Shown here one piece after another: positions 25,322 through 36,354 of a stretch of 64,000 nt of DNA. This DNA comes from Natronolimnohabitans sp. A-GB9 (GTDB taxonomy: Archaea > Halobacteriota > Halobacteria > Halobacteriales > Natrialbaceae): the NCBI RefSeq assembly GCF_030848565.1, contig NZ_JAVDDV010000018.1, positions 1 through 64,000 of the forward strand. The letters are read 5' to 3'. The notes under the pieces are model-generated. The model searched no databases. It had not been told where the DNA came from and worked only from the letters and a program-made list of their open reading frames with translations. Within the stretch, counting starts at the first letter, position 1. Every line of letters starts with the position of its first letter. A program made the position numbers and the translations under genes.

Positions 25322-26145
25322 GTCAAGCCCCGAGGCACTCGGCCTGTCTTTTCTGTAGATCCCTGCGATCTACTCTTCGGCGAACGTATTCGTACTCGTT
25401 ACACTCATACGAACGTAATATAATTTATAAAAGAACTGTAGCTGGCGGCGAAGTGTTTGAACAACTGTCACACGTCGAGGGACAGAACGGCTGGTGGTTC
25501 CCGCTGGGAAATATCCCGTCACGAACGACAGGTGCCTGGAGCGCGTATCATTGAGCTACCCACGACTGAAGTCCTGTCTCTTACCCACAACTGGAGCCGC
25601 TGTCGTGAGTGAACAAGATCGAGGAATGCAACCGAAACTCCCGGTTTTCACGGGCACAGTCACTCTCGAGGAGTGATTTCGTCGATCTCGCCTCCCGGTG
25701 TTCATCCACCCCAACCACTGGCATCATCGCTCGAATGCTCACTTCGACGAGTGGGGCGAGAAGCGTTTCGAGCCTGGAAACGCCTCGCCGATCGCCACGA
25801 GTGTACTTCGTTCGTGTGCGCGTCGACCCGAGATACCACGGATAATCGGACACCAACGCCGCTCTCGAGGACCTCGAACGGGGGTTCTCGAATCCAGTTC
25901 CTTCGAGTCCGTCTAATCCAGGACTGACCACGGAGATCCGCCGAGTAAACGGCAGTGTACACCCGACCGGACAGACGGGCGTGCGGGTCGGATGTGAGCG
26001 ACGTGCGTGAGATCCGTGACGTGGCGGGGACCGACGTGGTCTGGGAATGGCTGCGATCGGTATCCACGTACTCCCTCGATCGGAGCCGTCTCGAGACAAA
26101 CATGTTCGGGAAGGGTCTTTCTTTGATCGAGCGAGTACTAGCGAT
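25322..26145. other. decayed or non-coding stretch
   Basis: About 820 bp before the MoaD-like gene. Short frames only. Around 25555 the sequence GAGCTACCCACGACTGAAGT resembles the right end of IS200/IS605-type TnpB elements. Around 25700-25800 a plus-strand peptide (HHRSNAHFDEWGEKRFEPG) looks protein-like but has no start or continuation. Best read as remnants. Confidence 0.35.
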
Positions 26146-26547
26146 ATGAGTAGCATGACTTCCACGACTCGCGATCAGGCGACCACTACGACGACCGTCG
26201 ACGTCCGTTGTACTGGTCACGTTCGTGACGCGATCGGTACGCACGAACTCGAGTTCACGTTCGGGGGAACCACGCTAAAGGATTTCCTGATGGCGTTCTT
26301 CGAGGAGTACGACGTCGAGGACCTCCTGATCGCCGAGACAGAAGCCGATGCGACGGCACCGGGATGGGCGCCGACGCCGGACGAACTCCCCGGTACGTGG
26401 CGGAAGAACCCGGAAGGTGAACAGACGAGACCGTTCGCTCGCGTCTGTATAAACGGGCGATTCAACGAACACTACGATGGATTCGATACCGAACTCGAGA
26501 ACGGTGACAGGGTCGCACTGATCAAACCGTTCATGTTCTGCGTTTGA
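26146..26547 (+). CDS. MoaD/ThiS-like (ubiquitin-like fold) protein
   Basis: A 133-residue protein with the beta-grasp pattern: ELEFTFGGTTLKDFLMAFFE near the N-terminus and FARVCINGRFNEHYDGFDTE, LENGDRVALIKPF at the end. A 30-40-residue insertion (PGWAPTPDELPGTWRKNPEG) separates the halves. It ends FMFCV and lacks the diglycine needed by sulfur carriers and SAMP modifiers, so carrier activity is doubtful. Similar proteins occur with archaeal tungsten aldehyde oxidoreductases, but none is seen here. Short palindromes lie just downstream. Confidence 0.65.
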   Translation: MSSMTSTTRDQATTTTTVDVRCTGHVRDAIGTHELEFTFGGTTLKDFLMAFFEEYDVEDLLIAETEADATAPGWAPTPDELPGTWRKNPEGEQTRPFARVCINGRFNEHYDGFDTELENGDRVALIKPFMFCV

Positions 26548-26720: not shown

Positions 26721-27764
26721 ATGGCAAATTACAATCTCGAGAGTTCGGAGGGACGAGTAGAGGCGTTGCGCCGGATGCTGCTGATCCGAGCGTTCGACGA
26801 GGAGGCGGGGGATAGATTCGCGGACGGAGAAATACCTGGGTTCGTCCACCTCTATATCGGCGAGGAGGCAGTCGGTGTCGGCACCTGCGCAGCCCTGGAC
26901 CCCGACGACTACATCGCGAGCACCCACCGGGGACACGGCCACTGCATCGCGAAAGGACTCGATCCGAAGTACATGATGGCCGAACTGTACGGCAAGGCCG
27001 AAGGCTACTGTAACGGGAAAGGCGGCTCGATGCACATCGCGGACGTCGATGCCGGCATGCTCGGCGCAAACGGGATCGTCGGCGCAGGCCCGCCGCTAGC
27101 GACGGGTGCGGCGTTGTCGATCGACTACGACGACCGCGACCAGATCGCCGTCAGCTTCCTCGGGGATGGCGCGGTCGCGCAGGGCCAAGTCCACGAGGCG
27201 ATGAACCTCGCAGCGACGTGGGACCTGCCGGTTGTGTTCGTCGTCGAGAACAACCAGTACGGTGAGGGGACGCCGGTCGAGGACCAGCACAACGTCGACA
27301 ATCTGAGTGACACGGCCCAGGCGTACGACATTCCGGGGCTGACCGTCGATGGGATGGACGTCACCGCAGTCGCCGAGGCCGTCGACGAAGCCAGATCGCG
27401 AGCGCGAAACGGGAACGGTCCGACGCTCGTGGAAGCCGAGACCTACCGGTATCGCGGCCACTACGAAGGGGACGAAGAACCGTACCGCGACGAGGCAGAG
27501 ATCGAGCGCTGGAAAGACCGAGATCCGATCGACTCGTTCACGGAACGATTGATCGACCGGGACGAACTGACCGAAGCGGAGTTCGAGGAGCTACAAACCG
27601 AAGTCGAGGCGAAAATTCAGGACGCTGTCGACTACGCCCAGGACGCCACGCCGCCGGAGCCACACGAGGCCTACGACGACATGTTCGGCGAAATACCGCC
27701 GGAGATCGAACGATTCGCGACTGCCGCTCGAACCGACGGGGGAACCCCAGGAGGTGACCGATAA
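26721..27764 (+). CDS. acoA: thiamine-dependent 2-oxoacid/acetoin dehydrogenase E1 alpha subunit
   Basis: A 347-residue E1 alpha. Thiamine diphosphate is bound by the G148-D149-G150 ... E176-N177-N178 motif (FLGDGAVAQGQVHEAMN ... VVFVVENNQYGEG). THRGHGHCIAKG and GKGGSMHIAD are family hallmarks. Start at ATG 26721, close behind a TATA-like box. The next gene begins within its stop codon (TAATG). The presence of an AcoX-type protein in the operon favours acetoin dehydrogenase (acetoin to acetaldehyde plus acetyl-CoA), but pyruvate or a branched 2-oxoacid cannot be excluded by sequence. Confidence 0.88.
   Translation: MANYNLESSEGRVEALRRMLLIRAFDEEAGDRFADGEIPGFVHLYIGEEAVGVGTCAALDPDDYIASTHRGHGHCIAKGLDPKYMMAELYGKAEGYCNGKGGSMHIADVDAGMLGANGIVGAGPPLATGAALSIDYDDRDQIAVSFLGDGAVAQGQVHEAMNLAATWDLPVVFVVENNQYGEGTPVEDQHNVDNLSDTAQAYDIPGLTVDGMDVTAVAEAVDEARSRARNGNGPTLVEAETYRYRGHYEGDEEPYRDEAEIERWKDRDPIDSFTERLIDRDELTEAEFEELQTEVEAKIQDAVDYAQDATPPEPHEAYDDMFGEIPPEIERFATAARTDGGTPGGDR
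27749..27757 (+). promoter_or_regulatory. strong Shine-Dalgarno site for E1 beta
   Basis: AGGAGGTGA lies six bases before the ATG at 27764, inside the last codons of E1 alpha. It is one of the few clear ribosome sites in the window and confirms the start of an internal operon gene. Confidence 0.7.
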
Positions 27765-28777
27765 TGACTGCACAGGTCGAACGCGAACTCGAGACCGAAA
27801 CGGAGGAACTGACCGTCAGAGAGGCGATCCGCCAGGCGCTGCGGGAGGAACTCGAGCGCGACGAGGACGTCTTCCTCATCGGCGAGGACATCGGCGAGTT
27901 TGGCGGTGTCCTCGAGGTGACCGGCGACCTCTACGAGGAGTTCGGCGACGAACGGATCAAGGACACGCCGATCAGCGAGGCCGGCTTCACCGGCGCCGCG
28001 ACGGGCGCGGCAGCGACCGGGACGCGGCCGGTCGTGGAACTGATGTTCTCGGACTTCAGCGGCGTCGCGATGGAACAGATCATGAACCAGATGGCGAAGA
28101 TGCGTTATATGTTCGGCGGGAAGGCCGAGATGCCGGTCACCGTCCGGACGACCGAGGGCGGCGGCATGGGTGCCGCAAGCCAGCACTCGGGGACGGTCCA
28201 CACCTGGATGGCTCATTTCCCCGGCCTGAAAGCCGTCGCACCCGGAACCGCCGCGGCCGCGAAAGGGTTGACGAAAGCCGCGATCCGGTCGAACGACCCG
28301 GTTTTCGTCTTCGAGAACAAGATGATCTACGAGCAGACCGGGCAGGTTCCGACCGACGAAGATTATACCGCCCCGATCGGTGAGGCGGCGATCGAACGCG
28401 AGGGCGACGACGTCACCGTCGTCGCTACCCAGCGACTCGTCGGCGAGAGCCTTCAGACCGCCGAAAGCATCGCGGACGAGTTCGGTCTCGAGGTCGAAGT
28501 GATCGATCCGCGATCGCTGTATCCGCTAGACACCGAGACGATCGTCGAGAGCGTCCGCAAGACCGGGCGGCTGATCGTCGCCGACGAGAGCCCGCTCTCC
28601 TACGGTACCCACGCCGAGATCGTCGCGCGGGTCCAAGAAGAGGCGTTCTTTAGCCTCGACGCGCCGATTCAGCGGGTCGGAACCCCGGACACGCACATGC
28701 CGTTTAGTCCACCGCTCGAGAACGAGGTCCTGCCCGACGGGGACGACGTGCGGGCGGCGATCGAGCGGATCTCGTAG
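27764..28777 (+). CDS. acoB: 2-oxoacid/acetoin dehydrogenase E1 beta subunit
   Basis: A 337-residue E1 beta with the transketolase pyrimidine domain (LTVREAIRQALREELERDED; GEDIGEFGGV) and the C-terminal transketolase domain (VEVIDPRSLYPLDTETIVES, ending FSPPLENEVLPD). It forms the alpha2-beta2 E1 with the upstream product. It overlaps E1 alpha by one base and is followed by the acoX-like gene starting two bases after its stop, so the three are one tight operon. The acyltransferase partner is on the opposite strand 1.2 kb downstream. Confidence 0.9.
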   Translation: MTAQVERELETETEELTVREAIRQALREELERDEDVFLIGEDIGEFGGVLEVTGDLYEEFGDERIKDTPISEAGFTGAATGAAATGTRPVVELMFSDFSGVAMEQIMNQMAKMRYMFGGKAEMPVTVRTTEGGGMGAASQHSGTVHTWMAHFPGLKAVAPGTAAAAKGLTKAAIRSNDPVFVFENKMIYEQTGQVPTDEDYTAPIGEAAIEREGDDVTVVATQRLVGESLQTAESIADEFGLEVEVIDPRSLYPLDTETIVESVRKTGRLIVADESPLSYGTHAEIVARVQEEAFFSLDAPIQRVGTPDTHMPFSPPLENEVLPDGDDVRAAIERIS

Positions 28778-28778
28778 C

Positions 28779-29882
28779 GTGGCGTCGTCCGATTCCGACT
28801 CCAGTGCGGACTCCGAGTCCGACCGCGATCCCGATTCGGATCGGGCCCGCGTCGGGCTCGTCGTCAACCCGGCCGCAGGCAGGGACGTCCGCCGACTCAC
28901 CGGCGGAGCGAGCGTCGTCGACAACTACGCGAAACGCCGCATCGCCGAGTGCGTCCTCGAGGGGCTGACGGTCGCTGCCGACGGGATCGAGGTAGCCGCG
29001 ATGCCGTCCCGGGCCGGCATCGCCCGCGACGCTCTAGCGGAGTCTGACGTTGCCGCCGACGCGTTCCCGGCGGAGATCCTCGAGATGACTCTCGAGGGGT
29101 CGGCGGCCGACACCCGAACTGCAGCGGCTCGCTTCCGTGAGGAGACAGACACCATCGTCGTCCTCGGCGGCGACGGAACGACACGAGACGTGGCGCTCGA
29201 GAGCGGTTCGGTGCCGATCGTCGCAGTTGCGACGGGGACGAACACCGTCGTTCCGTCGCCGGTTGACGGGACTCTCGCGGGCGTCGCGGCTGGCCTCGTT
29301 GCGACGGGCGCGGTACCGGCAGACGACGTAACGACACGACATGGAACGGTCGAAGCGACGGTTCGATCCTCCGGAACAGCCGACGGGAGTCGACTAACTG
29401 CGCTCGTCTCGGCCGAAATATCGTCACGGTCGTTCGTCGGTACACGTGCCCTGCTCGATCCTGCCGATCTACGGGGCGGCGTCGTCTCTCGTGCACATCC
29501 GGGCGACGTCGGTCTGTCGGCGGTCGCCGGCGCGGTCATGTCCGAACCCGTGGTCGGCGACGATCCCGGCGGTGTCGCCGTCCGACTCGACGATCCCGAC
29601 ACAGCCGAACGGACCGTCCGAGCGGTCGTCGCACCCGGCGTCCTCGCGACGGTCGGCGTCGAGTCGTGGGAGCGACTCGAGCCCGGCGACTCGGTCTTGT
29701 TCGAGGTCCCCGACGGCGTTGTCGGAGCCGATGGTGAGCGCGAACTCGAGACCACTGACGCGACGGTCGAACTGTGCCCACTCAAGGCGGGACCGCGACT
29801 CGTCGACGTCGAGCGGACACTCGCAGTCGGAGCGCGACGTGGCGGATTCGACGTCGAGACAGCGTCTTCGGCACGGGAGTAG
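28779..29882 (+). CDS. acoX: AcoX-like ATP-NAD kinase family protein
   Basis: A 367-residue protein with the NAD-kinase fold: GLVVNPAAGRDVRRLTGGAS at the N-terminus and the nucleotide motif VVLGGDGTTRDVA around residue 127. A GTG start follows the E1 beta stop. The first 23 residues are a low-complexity run of S, D and E. AcoX proteins are encoded in bacterial acetoin operons, and their exact role is unclear. Here it is the best evidence that the operon handles acetoin. NAD phosphorylation is possible, as the GGDGT motif is intact. Confidence 0.8.
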   Translation: MASSDSDSSADSESDRDPDSDRARVGLVVNPAAGRDVRRLTGGASVVDNYAKRRIAECVLEGLTVAADGIEVAAMPSRAGIARDALAESDVAADAFPAEILEMTLEGSAADTRTAAARFREETDTIVVLGGDGTTRDVALESGSVPIVAVATGTNTVVPSPVDGTLAGVAAGLVATGAVPADDVTTRHGTVEATVRSSGTADGSRLTALVSAEISSRSFVGTRALLDPADLRGGVVSRAHPGDVGLSAVAGAVMSEPVVGDDPGGVAVRLDDPDTAERTVRAVVAPGVLATVGVESWERLEPGDSVLFEVPDGVVGADGERELETTDATVELCPLKAGPRLVDVERTLAVGARRGGFDVETASSARE

Positions 29883-29963: not shown

Positions 29964-31655
29964 TTACTGACGGTCCCACGAAAGGTCCAGTTCCAGATCC
30001 TCCCGAAGCAACTGCGAGACGTGACAGCCCCGCTCGCCGAGTTCGACGATCCGTTCGACGGTCTCGTCGTCCGCGTCGGTCTCGAGGTGGATCGTCGCCT
30101 CGATCGATTCCACCGAGCCGTGCTCGGGGTCGGCATCAGTCGTCACCGAGATCTCCCCGATCTCGGCGTCGCGCTTCTTGGCCTGGTAGCGCGTGCTCAG
30201 GGAGAGACAGGAGGCGAGTCCGCCGAGGAAGACGTCGACGGGCGTCGGACCGGTTTCGGTGCCGCCGCTGTCTTCGGGTTCGTCGTACTGCCACTCGAAA
30301 GACCCCGCGTCGATCCGGCCGTGCATGCCGTCGGGATTCGTCGCGGTGACGGTGCGTCCGGGCATCTCCTCCTCGCTTTCCCCTCGCTCTCGTCCGCTCC
30401 GGTCGATGTCCGCTGGCAGCAGATCCCACGGCTCCTCGAGGTTGTCGACGAGCGTCCCGAGGAAACGGGCAGCGTCGGCGCCGTCGACGACGCGGTGGTC
30501 GAACGAAAGGTCGAGCGGGAGATGGCGGCGCCACTCGAGGGCCTCGCCGCCGGCTTCGCTGCCCCCGCCGCGCACCGGTCGCTCTTCGACCGCGTCGACT
30601 CCCAGTATCGCGACCTGCGGCGGGTTGATGACCGGATCGAACGATTCGACCCCGAGCACACCGAGGTTCGTCACCGTGAACGTCCCACCGCGCAGGTCGT
30701 CCATCGTGTACTCTCCGCCCAGAGCGTCGTCGACGAGAGTGCGACGCTCTTCGGAGAGTTCGGACAGCGATTTCGATTCGACGTCGCGCAGCACCGGCGC
30801 GATCAACCCCTGTTCGACGTCGACCGCGATCCCGAGGTTGTGTTCCTCCCAGATGCGGTGGGTATCGTCCTCGAAGGTGGCGTTGAACGCGGGATGGTCC
30901 TCGAGCGTCGCCGACACCGCGAGCAAGAGCACGTCTTGAACGGAGACGTCGGCCTCGAGGGCGTCGTCTGCGGCATCGACAGCAGCAAACAGGTCCTCGG
31001 CGTCGGCCTCGCGATGAACGGTCACGTGGACGGCCTCGCGGTAGCTTTCGCTCAGCCGCGAAGCGATCGTTTGACGCATGCCGTCGAACGGGCGTTCTTC
31101 AGCGAGCGTTCTGCCACCGGCTGCCGCCACTGCTCCGGCCGCTTCTTCGGCTGTGGCTTCTACGTCCTCTTCCGTGATCGCGCCCTGATAGCCCGTTCCT
31201 TCGACGGTCGTAAGATCCACGCCGAGCTCCTCTGCGCGCTTTCGCGCGCGTGGGGAGACACGCATGTCATCGCTCGTCGTGCTGGTTTCGGCGCCACCGC
31301 CAGCGGCGTCGCCGCCCCCTGTCTCAGGCTCGGCCTCTGTGGGTTTCTCGGCGTCGGCTGCTTTTTCCCCTTCGAGGTCCGCCTTCGCTTCCGCCTCGAG
31401 ATCGTCGATTTCCGCGTCGGTCGGCGCGACGATCCCGATCGGCGTCCCGGGTGGTACCGCTTCTCCCTCCTCGAGATAGGTGCGCCGGAGGACGCCGTCC
31501 TCCCTGGCTTCGACTTCCCCGACGCTCTTCTCGGACTCGACTTCGGCGACCAACTCCCCTTCTTCGACGGACTCCTGTTTCTCGACGTGCCACTCGAGAA
31601 GAACTCCACGTTCCATCTCGAGACCGAGTTTCGGCATCCGAATGATGTACGCCAT
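29964..31655 (-). CDS. 2-oxoacid dehydrogenase E2 acyltransferase fused to a C-terminal OsmC domain
   Basis: A 563-residue fusion. In order: lipoyl domain (1-78; lipoyl lysine K43 in VESEKSVGE), an acidic alanine/glutamate linker, peripheral subunit-binding domain (131-167, VSPRARKRAEELGVDL), catalytic acyltransferase domain (about 187-415; H387 and D391 in FDHRVVDGAD) and an OsmC/Ohr domain (431-563) with both redox cysteines, C483 (GGLASCLSL) and C544 (ERGCHVS). ATG 31655 starts the lipoyl domain directly. It is convergent with the E1/AcoX operon, and no E3 gene is near. OsmC-type peroxidases are known to be re-reduced by lipoyl groups of E2 proteins, so the fusion links the two halves of that reaction in one chain. 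Confidence 0.88.
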   Translation of the reverse strand: MAYIIRMPKLGLEMERGVLLEWHVEKQESVEEGELVAEVESEKSVGEVEAREDGVLRRTYLEEGEAVPPGTPIGIVAPTDAEIDDLEAEAKADLEGEKAADAEKPTEAEPETGGGDAAGGGAETSTTSDDMRVSPRARKRAEELGVDLTTVEGTGYQGAITEEDVEATAEEAAGAVAAAGGRTLAEERPFDGMRQTIASRLSESYREAVHVTVHREADAEDLFAAVDAADDALEADVSVQDVLLLAVSATLEDHPAFNATFEDDTHRIWEEHNLGIAVDVEQGLIAPVLRDVESKSLSELSEERRTLVDDALGGEYTMDDLRGGTFTVTNLGVLGVESFDPVINPPQVAILGVDAVEERPVRGGGSEAGGEALEWRRHLPLDLSFDHRVVDGADAARFLGTLVDNLEEPWDLLPADIDRSGRERGESEEEMPGRTVTATNPDGMHGRIDAGSFEWQYDEPEDSGGTETGPTPVDVFLGGLASCLSLSTRYQAKKRDAEIGEISVTTDADPEHGSVESIEATIHLETDADDETVERIVELGERGCHVSQLLREDLELDLSWDRQ

Positions 31656-31894: not shown

Positions 31895-33307
31895 TCACTC
31901 CATCGTCGGCTCGGTGTTCTGATTTGAGCTGAAGAAGCTTGTCGGATCGTACTCGCCTTTTAGCGCGACCAGCCGGTCGTATGCATCGCCGAACGTCGTT
32001 TCTAGCATCTCGTCGCTGTCCTCGTAGAATCCCGGGAAGTTGAGATACACCGAGCCGTCGGAGAACTGCCGCATGTCATCCAGACAGTCGCGTGCCCACG
32101 CTATGTTCGTCTCATCTTGCCCGGGGACCTCCCAGTTTGCCTCCACGCCGAGGAGATACGGGGCCTCCCGACCGGCGAAGGCGCTTTCCTCGAGACCGAC
32201 GTCGGTGATCGTACCACCCAATGGCCAGACGTCGACCGTCGAGAGCGGTGACGGGGCCGCCTCCGCCCACTCGATACTGCGGTCGATGACATCGTCGGAG
32301 AGCGATTCGAGATACAACGATTTCCAGTAGTATCGCATGCCGTCGGGATAGTCTTCGTCGAACAGTTGTTGGAATTCCGTGTAGGGAATTTTGCCGCTGA
32401 AGTCCGCCAGTGGCTCGCCTAGCTCCCGCAGTGGCTCGATAACGGTTTCACCTTCTTCAGGTGCGTCCGCGTACATCCCCAGTATGGCGATCTTGAACTC
32501 GTCGACCACGTCTGCTGGGAAGAGTTCCTCTTCGGGGAACACTCCCGAGGAAACGAGTGTAGTGAGCTCGTTCGGTGCCGACTCCTCGTAGTCTCGGAAT
32601 GCACGCAGCACCTCTACAGCGAGATCCCCAGGATAGACCACAAATCCGGTGGCCACCTCTGGCCCAACCGAATGCAGGTCAAACTCGAATCCCGTCACGA
32701 TCCCGAATGTGCCACCGCCGCCGCGTAGCCCCCAGAAGAGTTCCTCGTTCTGGTCTTCGCTGGCGGTGCGGTGCTCGCCATCCGCGGTGACGATATCGAC
32801 GGACGCGAGGTTGTCACAGCTCAATCCGTATTTGTTCCGGAGATGACCGATCCCTCCGCCGAGGGTGAGCCCTGCGACCCCAGTATCAGAGACGACTCCG
32901 AGGGGTGTTGCCAGTCCGAACGCCTGCGTCTCGTGGTCGACATCGCCCAGCGTTGCACCTGCCTGAACCCACGCAGTCCGTTCGTCGGGGTCCACCCAGA
33001 CACCGTTCATCTCTGAGAGATCGATAACCATCCCGTCGTCGCAGACTGCGCTTCCAGCCACGTTGTGACCGCCGCTCCGAACTGCCACGAGGAGGTCGTT
33101 CTCTCGGGCGAAATTCACCGCACTGATGACGTCGGCGGTTCCCGAACAATAGGCGATTATGACGGGATACTTCTCGATCATCCCGTTCCACACCTCTCGG
33201 GCATCGTCGTAGCCATCATCGTCGGGGAGTACTACCTCACCGTAGAATCGCTCCGTCAGATCCTGGATGACGTCTTCTGAAACTGATGATGGTGTTGCGT
33301 TGGCCAT
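31895..33307 (-). CDS. FAD-binding oxidoreductase with berberine-bridge (BBE) domain
   Basis: A 470-residue FAD-linked oxidase. The PCMH-type FAD domain has VAVRSGGHNVAGSAV, where H81 is the expected covalent flavin ligand, and TLGGGIGHLRNKYGLSCDNL. The usual second anchor (Cys in a CPTVG-like loop) is absent; the loop reads TPLGVVSDTGVAG, so attachment should be through one bond. The C-terminus LKGEYDPTSFFSSNQN is the BBE motif. Start at ATG 33307. Relatives oxidise sugars or alcohols with O2 as acceptor; the substrate here is unknown. It stands alone between the E2 gene and an insertion sequence. Confidence 0.85.
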   Translation of the reverse strand: MANATPSSVSEDVIQDLTERFYGEVVLPDDDGYDDAREVWNGMIEKYPVIIAYCSGTADVISAVNFARENDLLVAVRSGGHNVAGSAVCDDGMVIDLSEMNGVWVDPDERTAWVQAGATLGDVDHETQAFGLATPLGVVSDTGVAGLTLGGGIGHLRNKYGLSCDNLASVDIVTADGEHRTASEDQNEELFWGLRGGGGTFGIVTGFEFDLHSVGPEVATGFVVYPGDLAVEVLRAFRDYEESAPNELTTLVSSGVFPEEELFPADVVDEFKIAILGMYADAPEEGETVIEPLRELGEPLADFSGKIPYTEFQQLFDEDYPDGMRYYWKSLYLESLSDDVIDRSIEWAEAAPSPLSTVDVWPLGGTITDVGLEESAFAGREAPYLLGVEANWEVPGQDETNIAWARDCLDDMRQFSDGSVYLNFPGFYEDSDEMLETTFGDAYDRLVALKGEYDPTSFFSSNQNTEPTME

Positions 33308-33642
33308 GGGATGGTCTACCCTATGTGGGATAGTCACATAGCGTCACTCCGTGACGAATCTGCAAGCGTTGACGGAGAGCCAGTCGATGAAGAGATACAG
33401 TAACAGTACGCGCTAATCCTTGGTTCGTTGCACATGCATTTCCTTTGCAACGATTAACCATAATATCGGTACTTCCCGAAGGTCGCTTCGTGAGCGGTGC
33501 TGAGTCATGGGAAACTGGAGCAAACGCTGGTGTGGTAGCTGAGTGAAGGACGAAATAGAGTTCACAGGTGAAGGAACCCGCGGTAAGAAGGCTGAGATCC
33601 GCTGTTCTAGGCGAATGCTGTTGCTCACCAGACCTTGCCCAA

Positions 33643-33670
33643 GGCCGCGGGCTGGCGTCAGCCCGCGGCC
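33643..33670. terminator. GC-rich hairpin at the transposase 3' end
   Basis: Perfect 12-bp stem GGCCGCGGGCTG / CAGCCCGCGGCC with loop GCGT. It includes the transposase stop codon (33658-33660). It may end transcription or shield the element from outside transcription. No T-tract follows. Confidence 0.45.
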
Positions 33671-34848
33671 GATGCGTACGCTTCTGGCACACCGACGCCG
33701 TTCATCTCAATCTCCCATGTTCGCTCTAACTCTTCCTCTAACGCGTGTCTGATCCAGTCAGAGAAGGTCTTGAACGTGAATTCCTCGGGCAGGTCGCGCC
33801 CGCCCCGCCGTGGGCGGGCGACGACCGCCCATCGAAGCACAAGCCAGAGGTTCTCCAACAGGAATCCAACCAGAACGAACGCAAAGCGGATGATTGGGTC
33901 TTGTGTCGTCGTTACCACCCGTGCTTGGCGGAATACACGGTAGCTTGTCTCGATTGCTGACCGTTTTCGGTAGAGTCGTTCGACTTGCTTCGGCGTGCGA
34001 TCGGCCAGATCGCACGCCACATAACCTCGAACGACTTCGCCGCTTTTCCCGCGATCTCCGGCGTGATAGGAGACAGCGACCGCGAGCGGGAATTTTAGTT
34101 CCCGCTCGCGGCCTTTGTACATCCGATAGGTCGTCATGTACGAGCGGTGCGTATCCAGCTTCTTCCTCATGCGCTTGCCCTTCTTTTGGACGGGTACGAC
34201 AGTCGCAGCAATCTCCCGCGAACGACGCAGGATACGTTCGTTGTAGAAGCCACGATCAGCCAAGAGCAGCTCTATCTCGAAGGGATAGGCTTCGACGCGG
34301 TCGAGGACGCGCTCGACCGCGTCGGCCTCCTTCTCGTCACTCCGGACGTACGTCATGGCCAACGTCACCGGCTTCCCGTTCGAGACGAGATACGCGGTAC
34401 AGTACCGGTGACACGTCGTTGTTCCGTCTTTCGCGTGCATGCGACAGAGTTCACCTTCTTGATCGGCGTACGTTCCGTGATAGGGGTTATCGACGAAGTC
34501 GATGGAGACGATCCTCGACCGATCAGGGTCGAGGATCGTCATCGCTACCTCCCGAAGAAGGTGGTTAGCAACCCGCTCAAGCCACTCCCGGTTGAGCGTA
34601 TGGAGCCAATCCATGACAGTATCATCACAGGGTGCGTTATCGTTGTCCTTGCACGTCTCCCAGATGGATGTCTGGTTGACTGCTGCAAGAATGACAACAG
34701 CCCAGATATCGCCGGGATCGAGGGGCGACCCCTCGATCCCTGGCAAAGGGAGCTGACGGATGACGTCTTCCGCTAAATCTTTCACATCCGAGTCCGAAAG
34801 AACACCGTCTGGCTGAGGGATCTTGAACACATTCACACAGCCAGACAT
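33658..34848 (-). CDS. ISH3-family-like DDE transposase
   Basis: A 396-residue transposase with the DDE pattern: first aspartate around SIDFVDNPYHGTY, second in LLADRGFYNERIL, glutamate in KRSAIETSYRVFRQARV. Layout matches the broken element at 54181-55526 (same LxDRGFY and RRGGR motifs) but the sequences are quite diverged, so they are different members. The frame is open throughout and the element ends are present, so it may be active. Its 3' end forms a strong hairpin. Confidence 0.8.
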   Translation of the reverse strand: MSGCVNVFKIPQPDGVLSDSDVKDLAEDVIRQLPLPGIEGSPLDPGDIWAVVILAAVNQTSIWETCKDNDNAPCDDTVMDWLHTLNREWLERVANHLLREVAMTILDPDRSRIVSIDFVDNPYHGTYADQEGELCRMHAKDGTTTCHRYCTAYLVSNGKPVTLAMTYVRSDEKEADAVERVLDRVEAYPFEIELLLADRGFYNERILRRSREIAATVVPVQKKGKRMRKKLDTHRSYMTTYRMYKGRERELKFPLAVAVSYHAGDRGKSGEVVRGYVACDLADRTPKQVERLYRKRSAIETSYRVFRQARVVTTTQDPIIRFAFVLVGFLLENLWLVLRWAVVARPRRGGRDLPEEFTFKTFSDWIRHALEEELERTWEIEMNGVGVPEAYASAAG

Positions 34849-34904: not shown

Positions 34905-35232
34905 TAGACGGCTTTGCGACACAACTGTTCTTTATCTAATTACTTTCACGAAAAGAGGAGTGCTAGACACTAGATACGTGCCTGACGTTCTCTAGGAGAT
35001 GATTTCCATATGCAACCAACTACTTTTCCACTTCTCTGATTGGCGGGTCCTGTCCATTAGCTGGACGGGAATTTTGTATAGCGGTATAATATTTACAGAC
35101 CGTCGTATTAGCGGATATCTTCGCATACATTGTCTGTGACTCCTGAATTCGGCGCTGAGAATTTACTTGGCTAAACACCAGTTTGACCAAGTAGATTTAC
35201 TAGGGTCGAAGCTGTACCCCAAAGTGAGAATC
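34905..35232. promoter_or_regulatory. AT-rich region upstream of the integrase
   Basis: 328 bp of low GC. TATAGCGGTATAATATTTAC around 35078-35097 is a plausible promoter core. Attachment-site core repeats could lie here, but I find no direct repeat shared with the distal side of the mobile region. Confidence 0.4.
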
Positions 35233-36354
35233 ATGGATTCAGGAAATTCGGGGGATACGACCACTTCCCGAGGCCGCAACCCCCAGGGTTTGTCCGTCGA
35301 AGACATGGTCGACCGCTACCTCAACTACGGGCTCGAGTCCGGTGGGAGTCGCGCCGCGATGAAACCCGTCCTCGAGTCGTTCGTCGAGTTTTGTGATGCC
35401 AAGGGAATCGAGTCCGTCGGCGACCTCACCTCGAGTGACCTGCGAACCTACGGCTTCGAACTCCGCAAGCGCCACGACGCCGAGGAGATCGCCGGGTCGA
35501 CGGCGAATACCTATTTCCAGTACGTCCGGGCGTTCCTCTCGTTTTGCGTGCGGGACGAACAACTCGACACGAACCCCGCTGACACCGAACGCGCCGAAGA
35601 GTTCCTTCCAGAGGACAAGCCCGTCCGTGACACCCAGGTGTGGAAACCCAAACAGCGCAAACGGCTCGTCGCCTACGCGACCGAGCGTGTCGAGATGGCA
35701 CTCGAGGAGACGATCGACGTCCCGCGAGAACGCGCCTACCGAGATCGGACGATCGTCGTCTTGCTCGCCGAACTCGGGGTTCGTGGCGCGGAACTTTTTC
35801 GAGACCGCAACGACGACGAGCGCAACGGCCTTCGGTGGAGTGACGTCGACCTCGAGCGCGGTCGAATGCTCGTGTACGGCAAGTCTCGGGAGTACGACCC
35901 CGTGGGGTTGACCGAGGCTGCTTACGACGCCCTCGAGCGCCTCCAGCGTGTTCAAGAGCCACCGATCGACGACTGGCCTGTGTTCCCGACTGAACACGCC
36001 GCAAGCAAGTACAGCGCCGTCGAAGACGCCACGGGCGAACGGCCCGAACCCGGCAGCGACATCGACGCGATTTGTCGCGAGAAGGGCATTGCCCCGCCAG
36101 CGATCACCAAAGAGGCCGGTCGACAACTCATGCGACAGTTGACCGAGGAAGCGGGGATCGAACTCGAGGGCGACGCCGAGTACCTACAACCACACGGGGC
36201 GCGGCGAGCACTCGGGGCGGAATTGTACGAAAAGGGCCACTCAGAGCTTGCACAGTCGGCACTCCGGCACAAGTCCATCGAGACGACACACGAGGCTTAT
36301 ACCGACATCCAGGCCGAAGACGTGGCGAAGGATATTGACGAGATTCGGGAGTAG
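35233..36354 (+). CDS. tyrosine recombinase/integrase
   Basis: A 373-residue XerC/D-like phage-type integrase. SAM-like core-binding domain at residues 20-115; catalytic domain with R184 (GVRGAELFR), H321-x-x-R324 (PHGARRALG), H346 and nucleophile Y356 (THEAYTDIQ). ATG 35233 follows an AT-rich promoter; a longer frame starts at 35167. It is the only complete integrase and marks one side of the mobile region; a paralogue of about 75% identity, cut at its 5' end, lies at 49354-50124. It is expected to mediate site-specific integration or excision of this element. Confidence 0.88.
   Translation: MDSGNSGDTTTSRGRNPQGLSVEDMVDRYLNYGLESGGSRAAMKPVLESFVEFCDAKGIESVGDLTSSDLRTYGFELRKRHDAEEIAGSTANTYFQYVRAFLSFCVRDEQLDTNPADTERAEEFLPEDKPVRDTQVWKPKQRKRLVAYATERVEMALEETIDVPRERAYRDRTIVVLLAELGVRGAELFRDRNDDERNGLRWSDVDLERGRMLVYGKSREYDPVGLTEAAYDALERLQRVQEPPIDDWPVFPTEHAASKYSAVEDATGERPEPGSDIDAICREKGIAPPAITKEAGRQLMRQLTEEAGIELEGDAEYLQPHGARRALGAELYEKGHSELAQSALRHKSIETTHEAYTDIQAEDVAKDIDEIRE

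What the first reader, a model, noticed from the sequence alone, without database searches (positions are those of the whole stretch)
29964..31655. E2 acyltransferase fused to an OsmC/Ohr-type peroxidase domain
One chain carries lipoyl (K43), E1/E3-binding, acyltransferase (H387, D391) and OsmC (C483, C544) domains. OsmC/Ohr peroxidases are established to draw electrons from lipoylated proteins. A fusion to E2 would let the swinging lipoyl arm serve both acetyl transfer and hydroperoxide removal. No E3 gene is adjacent, so the OsmC domain might even be an alternative outlet for reduced lipoyl groups.
Basis: partly seen in the sequence, partly recalled or inferred. Interest (0 to 1): 0.82.

Follow-up and report, generated by a model that had tools for sequence, protein, structure and literature searches.

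The report
Dehydrogenase-complex core enzyme carrying OsmC domain
In many salt-loving archaea, one protein joins the core enzyme of a pyruvate-dehydrogenase-like complex to a small cysteine-based redox enzyme, and evolution has since separated the two halves in both directions, so the redox half evidently has its own job and does not need its attached lipoyl arm.

Summary
The fusion is real. Window 29964-31655, minus strand, encodes 563 aa: lipoyl domain (K43), E3-binding domain, live acyltransferase core (H387/D391), then an OsmC domain (C483/C544). It faces E1-alpha, E1-beta and an AcoX/NAD-kinase-like gene, an acetoin-dehydrogenase-like set. It is not an artefact: 47 distinct fused proteins were collected across several families of Halobacteriales, and the acyltransferase tree favours one ancient fusion with two or three later OsmC losses. 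I found no description of it in the open papers searched.

The OsmC domain lacks the catalytic Arg and Glu of proven Ohr/OsmC peroxidases, the uncharacterised YhfA-like condition, so 'peroxidase' is unproven. At least five lineages lost the acyltransferase core and the lipoyl lysine yet kept both OsmC cysteines, so the in-chain arm is dispensable for whatever OsmC does. The 'substitute for missing E3' idea fails: live complexes of this type without OsmC also lack a nearby E3 (0 of 20, against 1 of 37 with it), and the genome has a true E3 elsewhere.

Most likely it is an acetoin-type E2 carrying a semi-autonomous two-cysteine redox enzyme that can use, but does not require, its own lipoyl arm. 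The substrate, perhaps hydroperoxides, is unknown.

The parts
29964..31655 (-). E2-OsmC fusion gene, 563 aa
31434..31643 (-). lipoyl domain (residues 5-74); lipoyl lysine K43, codon 31527-31529
   Evidence: Pfam PF00364; lysine kept in 46 of 47 fused proteins with a live core
31158..31262 (-). E3/E1-binding domain (residues 132-166)
   Evidence: Pfam PF02817
30417..31100 (-). acyltransferase core (residues 186-413), DHRVVDG motif with H387 and D391
   Evidence: Pfam PF00198
29967..30365 (-). OsmC domain (residues 431-563), C483 and C544; YhfA-like, without the Ohr Arg/Glu pair
   Evidence: Pfam PF02566
26721..27764 (+). E1-alpha subunit (thiamine diphosphate enzyme)
   Evidence: PF00676, NCBIfam TIGR03182 378.7 bits (cut-off 393.85)
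27764..28777 (+). E1-beta subunit
   Evidence: PF02779/PF02780, NF006667 over cut-off
28779..29882 (+). AcoX-like (NAD-kinase-like) protein, convergent with the E2-OsmC gene
   Evidence: PF01513; same gene order in 79 haloarchaeal loci

Best explanation
The gene encodes a working E2 (dihydrolipoyl acyltransferase) of an acetoin-dehydrogenase-like complex with an OsmC-fold, two-cysteine redox enzyme joined to the end of its core. Proposed working: E1 loads an acyl group onto the lipoyl arm (K43), the E2 core passes it to CoA, and the reduced arm is re-oxidised by the E3 shared with the PDH cluster. Separately, C483 of the OsmC domain reduces an oxidised substrate, C544 closes the disulfide, and a dihydrolipoyl group reduces it again. 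That group may be this arm or the arm of another E2. Docking on the E2 core puts the redox enzyme beside lipoyl arms but does not make it depend on the one in its own chain. Shown by sequence: all domains and residues, the conserved gene neighbourhood, an ancient fusion, and separability of the two halves in both directions. Inferred: reduction by lipoyl groups, and a hydroperoxide as substrate (my estimate about 0.4).
For: Domains and residues. 46 of 47 fused proteins keep the lipoyl lysine, and all 47 have a live-core motif. C483 and C544 are invariant in 69 of 69 E2-linked OsmC domains. The E1a-E1b-AcoX/E2 gene order is conserved in 79 loci; 37 carry the fused OsmC and all 37 have a live core. 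The acyltransferase tree, with PDH-type E2s as outgroup, needs 4 changes, which I read as one gain plus losses. The core-less lipoyl-OsmC form arose at least 5 times with both cysteines kept and the lysine lost. 11 of 12 such genomes also lack AcoX, whereas all 12 fused or split genomes tested have it. OsmC evolves under purifying selection there (dN/dS 0.15-0.42). Intermediate stages exist: L127 (AcoX in fragments, E2-OsmC intact) and L074 (lipoyl and E3-binding domains gone, core and OsmC kept). A true E3 is encoded elsewhere in the genome. Literature: Ohr and OsmC are reduced by lipoylated proteins (PMC4486171, PMC8945050).
Against: No biochemical evidence exists for this subgroup. It lacks the Arg/Glu pair that makes Ohr a fast peroxidase, and PMC4069020 excepts the YhfA class from the peroxidases. 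Retention without a lipoyl lysine could mean the electrons never come from lipoyl groups. OsmC was lost from at least two clades that keep a live E2, so the complex does not need it. Deep branches of the OsmC tree are weakly supported.
Confidence: 0.5

Rival explanations
1. One reading: OsmC is a hydroperoxide reductase driven by the swinging lipoyl arm of its own chain, and the fusion exists for that coupling.
For: Ohr and OsmC are reduced by lipoylated E2/E3 (PMC4486171, PMC8945050); lipoyl domain and OsmC share a chain in dozens of species.
Against: OsmC persists with both cysteines after loss of the lipoyl lysine in 12 genomes, at least 5 independent events. The catalytic Arg/Glu pair is absent.
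Confidence: 0.2
2. OsmC is an outlet for reduced lipoyl groups that replaces the missing E3.
For: No E3 within about 9.5 kb in 40 of 41 OsmC-bearing loci; taken over all loci, E3 is commoner where OsmC is absent (7 of 38, Fisher p 0.025, not corrected for relatedness).
Against: All 7 of those E3 genes belong to loci with a degenerate acyltransferase. Among live complexes E3 is absent with OsmC (36 of 37) and without it (20 of 20), p = 1. The genome has a lipoamide dehydrogenase above its model cut-off, and the E3-binding domain is intact.
Confidence: 0.05
3. OsmC is a redox sensor or regulator: under oxidants its disulfide blocks or tunes the E2 complex rather than turning over a substrate.
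For: Fused OsmC occurs only with live cores (37 of 37); it has conserved cysteines without the canonical peroxidase residues.
Against: OsmC is kept under purifying selection after the core and E1/AcoX are gone, when nothing is left to regulate in the chain.
Confidence: 0.15
4. OsmC handles a by-product of the reaction or repairs damaged thiols or acyl-lipoyl groups, not peroxides.
For: Presence in an acetoin-type locus; absence of the Ohr Arg/Glu pair and a clade-specific Arg (R542) beside C544 in 66 of 69 sequences.
Against: No known OsmC-fold enzyme does this to my knowledge; core-less forms persist without the complex.
Confidence: 0.1

Closest known systems
Acetoin dehydrogenase / 2-oxoacid dehydrogenase complexes, E2 component
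   Same: Lipoyl, E3-binding and acyltransferase domains in standard order with standard catalytic motif; E1-alpha, E1-beta and an AcoX-like gene next door. Haloferax HVO_0669/0668 are 54%/47% identical to Bacillus AcoA/AcoB (PMC8305020); that the window's E1 is their orthologue is inferred.
   Different: Carries a C-terminal OsmC domain; the gene is convergent with E1/AcoX; no E3 in the locus; substrate untested.
Ohr and OsmC lipoyl-dependent peroxidases
   Same: OsmC fold, two conserved cysteines in the expected places; the class is reduced by lipoylated E2/E3 (PMC4486171, PMC8945050).
   Different: Separate proteins there; this domain lacks the catalytic Arg and Glu and falls far below the Ohr model cut-off.
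YhfA-like OsmC proteins (E. coli YhfA, PDB 1ml8; archaeal Ta0195, PDB 2onf)
   Same: Two cysteines without the Arg/Glu pair (for YhfA, PMC8945050); close structural match.
   Different: Stand-alone, function uninvestigated (PMC8945050); here joined to an E2 core, with clade-specific R434 and R542.
Alpha/beta hydrolase-OsmC fusions (PDB 9wo1)
   Same: Another enzyme fused N-terminally to an OsmC domain.
   Different: Different partner enzyme; no lipoyl domain was reported in the matches here.

Membership tests
2-oxoacid dehydrogenase E2 | lipoyl domain with lipoylatable lysine | tested here: met
   PF00364; K43 in ESEKSVGEV
2-oxoacid dehydrogenase E2 | peripheral subunit (E3) binding domain | tested here: met
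   PF02817 residues 132-166
2-oxoacid dehydrogenase E2 | acyltransferase core with DHRxxDG | tested here: met
   PF00198 222 bits; FDHRVVDGA
2-oxoacid dehydrogenase E2 | multimeric core and lipoylation in the cell | not testable with these tools
   needs biochemistry
acetoin dehydrogenase | E1-alpha, E1-beta and AcoX-like gene in one locus | tested here: met
   window; 79 loci; AcoX described as predicted NAD kinase in aco clusters (PMC9676059)
acetoin dehydrogenase | E1 specific for acetoin | tested here: inconclusive
   E1-alpha TIGR03182 378.7 bits, cut-off 393.85; no acetoin E1 sequence was compared directly
OsmC superfamily (PF02566) | profile, fold and two conserved cysteines | tested here: met
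Ohr peroxidase subfamily | TIGR03561 above cut-off | tested here: not met
   22.9 bits against 88.85
Ohr/OsmC peroxidases | catalytic Arg and Glu near the peroxidatic Cys | tested here: not met
   positions are M444 and V473; Arg in 4 of 69 and Glu in 0 of 69 E2-linked sequences
YhfA-like OsmC class | both cysteines without the Arg/Glu pair | tested here: met
   definition from PMC8945050
YhfA-like OsmC class | structurally nearer YhfA than Ohr | tested here: inconclusive
   1ml8 Z 15.4, Ohr 13-15; TM 0.84 against mostly 0.65-0.79
lipoyl-dependent peroxidase (function) | hydroperoxide reduction driven by dihydrolipoyl groups | not testable with these tools
   needs an enzyme assay

The most novel reading that the evidence does not exclude
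A YhfA-like OsmC enzyme, a class without known activity, does its chemistry as a built-in redox unit of an archaeal dehydrogenase complex, using lipoyl arms (own or foreign) to reduce a so far unknown substrate, and is so useful that it is repeatedly rescued when the complex decays.
Probability: 0.35. Interest if true: 0.75.

Novelty: new variant of a known kind. Interest (0 to 1): 0.55.

Why it matters
Ohr and OsmC are known to take electrons from lipoylated E2 and E3 as separate proteins. Here that link, or something like it, is built into one chain and kept over the diversification of several haloarchaeal families. The natural variants (fused, split, core lost, lipoyl lysine lost, OsmC lost) make two questions directly testable in tractable haloarchaea: what YhfA-like OsmC proteins do, and whether they need lipoyl groups.

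Tried and rejected
Sequencing artefact: rejected (dozens of independent genomes). OsmC as a substitute for E3: tested by a table of 79 loci and rejected for live complexes. Fusion outside Halobacteriales: in 393 genomes drawn from the phylum no match scored like the E2-linked group (which scores over 80 bits) outside the order; plasmid records showed none among the best 40. This does not exclude bacteria in general. Literature: six searches bearing on the fusion found no description of it; most subscription papers are not held. A paper on archaeal lipoylation sorts lipoyl proteins by domain without mention of OsmC (PMC3904984). A first regular expression for the lipoyl lysine hit the wrong motif and was replaced.

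Full report
WHAT IS THERE. The window lies in a haloarchaeal genome (G000, 4.3 Mb). The gene runs on the minus strand from 31655 to 29964 and encodes 563 residues. Pfam finds a lipoyl domain, an E3-binding domain, a 2-oxoacid dehydrogenase acyltransferase core and an OsmC domain, in that order, all over their cut-offs. AlphaFold2 gives confident models of the full chain (pLDDT 84) and of the OsmC domain (92). The latter matches OsmC-fold structures, with Ta0195 (2onf), M. pneumoniae OsmC (1lql) and E. coli YhfA (1ml8) at the top and Ohr proteins close behind.

SURROUNDINGS. On the plus strand, facing the gene, are E1-alpha (26721-27764), E1-beta (27764-28777) and an NAD-kinase-like protein (28779-29882). 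The last corresponds by position and family to AcoX of acetoin clusters, described as a predicted NAD kinase (PMC9676059). The E1 substrate is not shown. The genome has one other acyltransferase E2, in a cluster with a dihydrolipoyl dehydrogenase that passes its NCBIfam cut-off with 530 bits. E3 is therefore available in trans.

IS IT CHANCE OR ARTEFACT? No. Within the family, many genomes hold the same fusion with roughly 60-90% identity over the OsmC domain. In 392 genomes of the order further fusions occur in four other families. In all, 47 distinct fused proteins with a live core were collected; 46 have the lipoyl lysine. The two OsmC cysteines are invariant in 69 of 69 E2-linked OsmC sequences. 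Domain-wise dN/dS between the window and relatives is 0.12-0.18 for OsmC and 0.14-0.23 for the core.

HISTORY. A tree of acyltransferase cores, with PDH-type E2s as the outgroup, needs four changes of the label 'fused'. With the root on the PDH side this reads as one gain at the base of this haloarchaeal E2 group and later losses in an f6 clade, an f17/f5/f4 clade and perhaps L146, whose branch is long. Some joints near the base are weakly supported.

FOUR ARRANGEMENTS. (1) Fused, live core, next to E1a-E1b-AcoX: 37 of 79 AcoX loci. (2) The same locus, live core, no OsmC: 20. (3) The same locus, core with the catalytic His replaced, no OsmC: 18. (4) The same as (3) with a separate OsmC gene beside E1-alpha: 4. 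In addition, 12 genomes encode short proteins (about 220-340 aa open frames) that are a degenerate lipoyl domain plus OsmC, without the core, away from E1 genes. In these the lipoyl lysine is gone and both OsmC cysteines are kept. On the OsmC tree they need 6 changes, at least 5 forced by well supported branches, so the core was lost repeatedly. Of the 12 genomes 11 have no AcoX; the twelfth, G055, has an AcoX locus with a degenerate core elsewhere. All 12 fused or split genomes tested have AcoX. L127 shows AcoX in fragments and no E1 nearby beside an intact E2-OsmC. L074 has lost the lipoyl lysine and the E3-binding domain but keeps core and OsmC. These look like stages of one process: the complex decays and OsmC stays.

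CAVEAT ON THE REMNANTS. In the core-less genes the lipoyl remnant has pN/pS of 0.42-0.58, against 0.18-0.47 for OsmC; short stretches upstream of the presumed start give 0.57-1.76. Translation could also begin at the conserved Met at the OsmC start. I therefore claim constraint for OsmC only.

WHICH OSMC? The proven peroxidases Ohr and OsmC have a catalytic Arg and Glu (XfOhr Arg19 and Glu51, PMC5962072). In the profile alignment to Ohr structures these fall on M444 and V473. Across 69 E2-linked sequences Arg is found 4 times at the first position and Glu never at the second. Asp/Glu at the neighbouring D474 is conserved, as are R434 and R542 (66 of 69 each); R542, two residues before C544, is mostly absent from other haloarchaeal OsmC proteins. 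Two cysteines without the Arg/Glu pair is what sets the YhfA class apart; its activity is uninvestigated (PMC8945050) and PMC4069020 excepts it from the peroxidases.

MECHANISM. Established elsewhere: oxidised Ohr and OsmC are reduced by lipoylated E2/E3 (PMC4486171, PMC8945050), and Ohr has been crystallised with dihydrolipoamide (6ebg and 6ebd). A lipoyl carrier joined to an OsmC domain makes that link plausible. The core-less forms show that the arm in the same chain is not required. OsmC loss from E2s shows that the complex does not require OsmC. I therefore favour a semi-autonomous redox enzyme held on the E2 core, able to use lipoyl groups of its own or of other E2s. The substrate is open; hydroperoxides are the first candidate.

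E3 REPLACEMENT. The idea that OsmC stands in for a missing E3 was tested. Over all loci E3 within about 9.5 kb is rarer with OsmC (1 of 41) than without (7 of 38; p 0.025), but all 7 lie in loci with a degenerate core. Among live complexes the figures are 1 of 37 and 0 of 20. The single E3 with OsmC belongs to a neighbouring PDH cluster. The idea is not supported.

NOVELTY. I found no account of the fusion in the open-access library. It may still stand in domain-architecture databases. I rate it a new variant of a known kind.

Noticed in passing
L060:7784-9280(-), L142:5686-7044(+), L143, L144, L145 and others: 22 AcoX-type loci have an E2 whose acyltransferase core has lost the catalytic His (e.g. 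TYDTRAIG for FDHRVVDG), with E3-binding repeats and, in 20 of the 22, a recognisable lipoyl lysine motif (two frames appear incomplete). What takes the acyl group there is unexplained.
   Followed up: partly
L077, L079, L063-L068, L078, L115, L116, L121: Short lipoyl-OsmC proteins without acyltransferase core; lipoyl lysine lost, OsmC cysteines kept.
   Followed up: yes
L070:5542-7668(-): E1-alpha and E1-beta in one 709-residue open frame next to a divergent E2-OsmC fusion.
   Followed up: no
L127:2358-3295 (G085): AcoX broken into three overlapping open-frame pieces beside an intact E2-OsmC gene, probably a pseudogene.
   Followed up: partly
L017 (G073): Lipoyl domain and core-OsmC lie in different frames, a frameshift or sequencing error.
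   Followed up: no
window 31895-33337 (-): Berberine-bridge-like FAD oxidase upstream of the E2-OsmC gene; within about 9.5 kb of AcoX only one other of the 79 loci has a relative.
   Followed up: partly
window 33658-34848 (-) and 35167-36354 (+): DDE transposase and phage-type integrase near the locus.
   Followed up: no
window 26047-26547 (+): ThiS/MoaD-like protein just upstream of E1-alpha.
   Followed up: no
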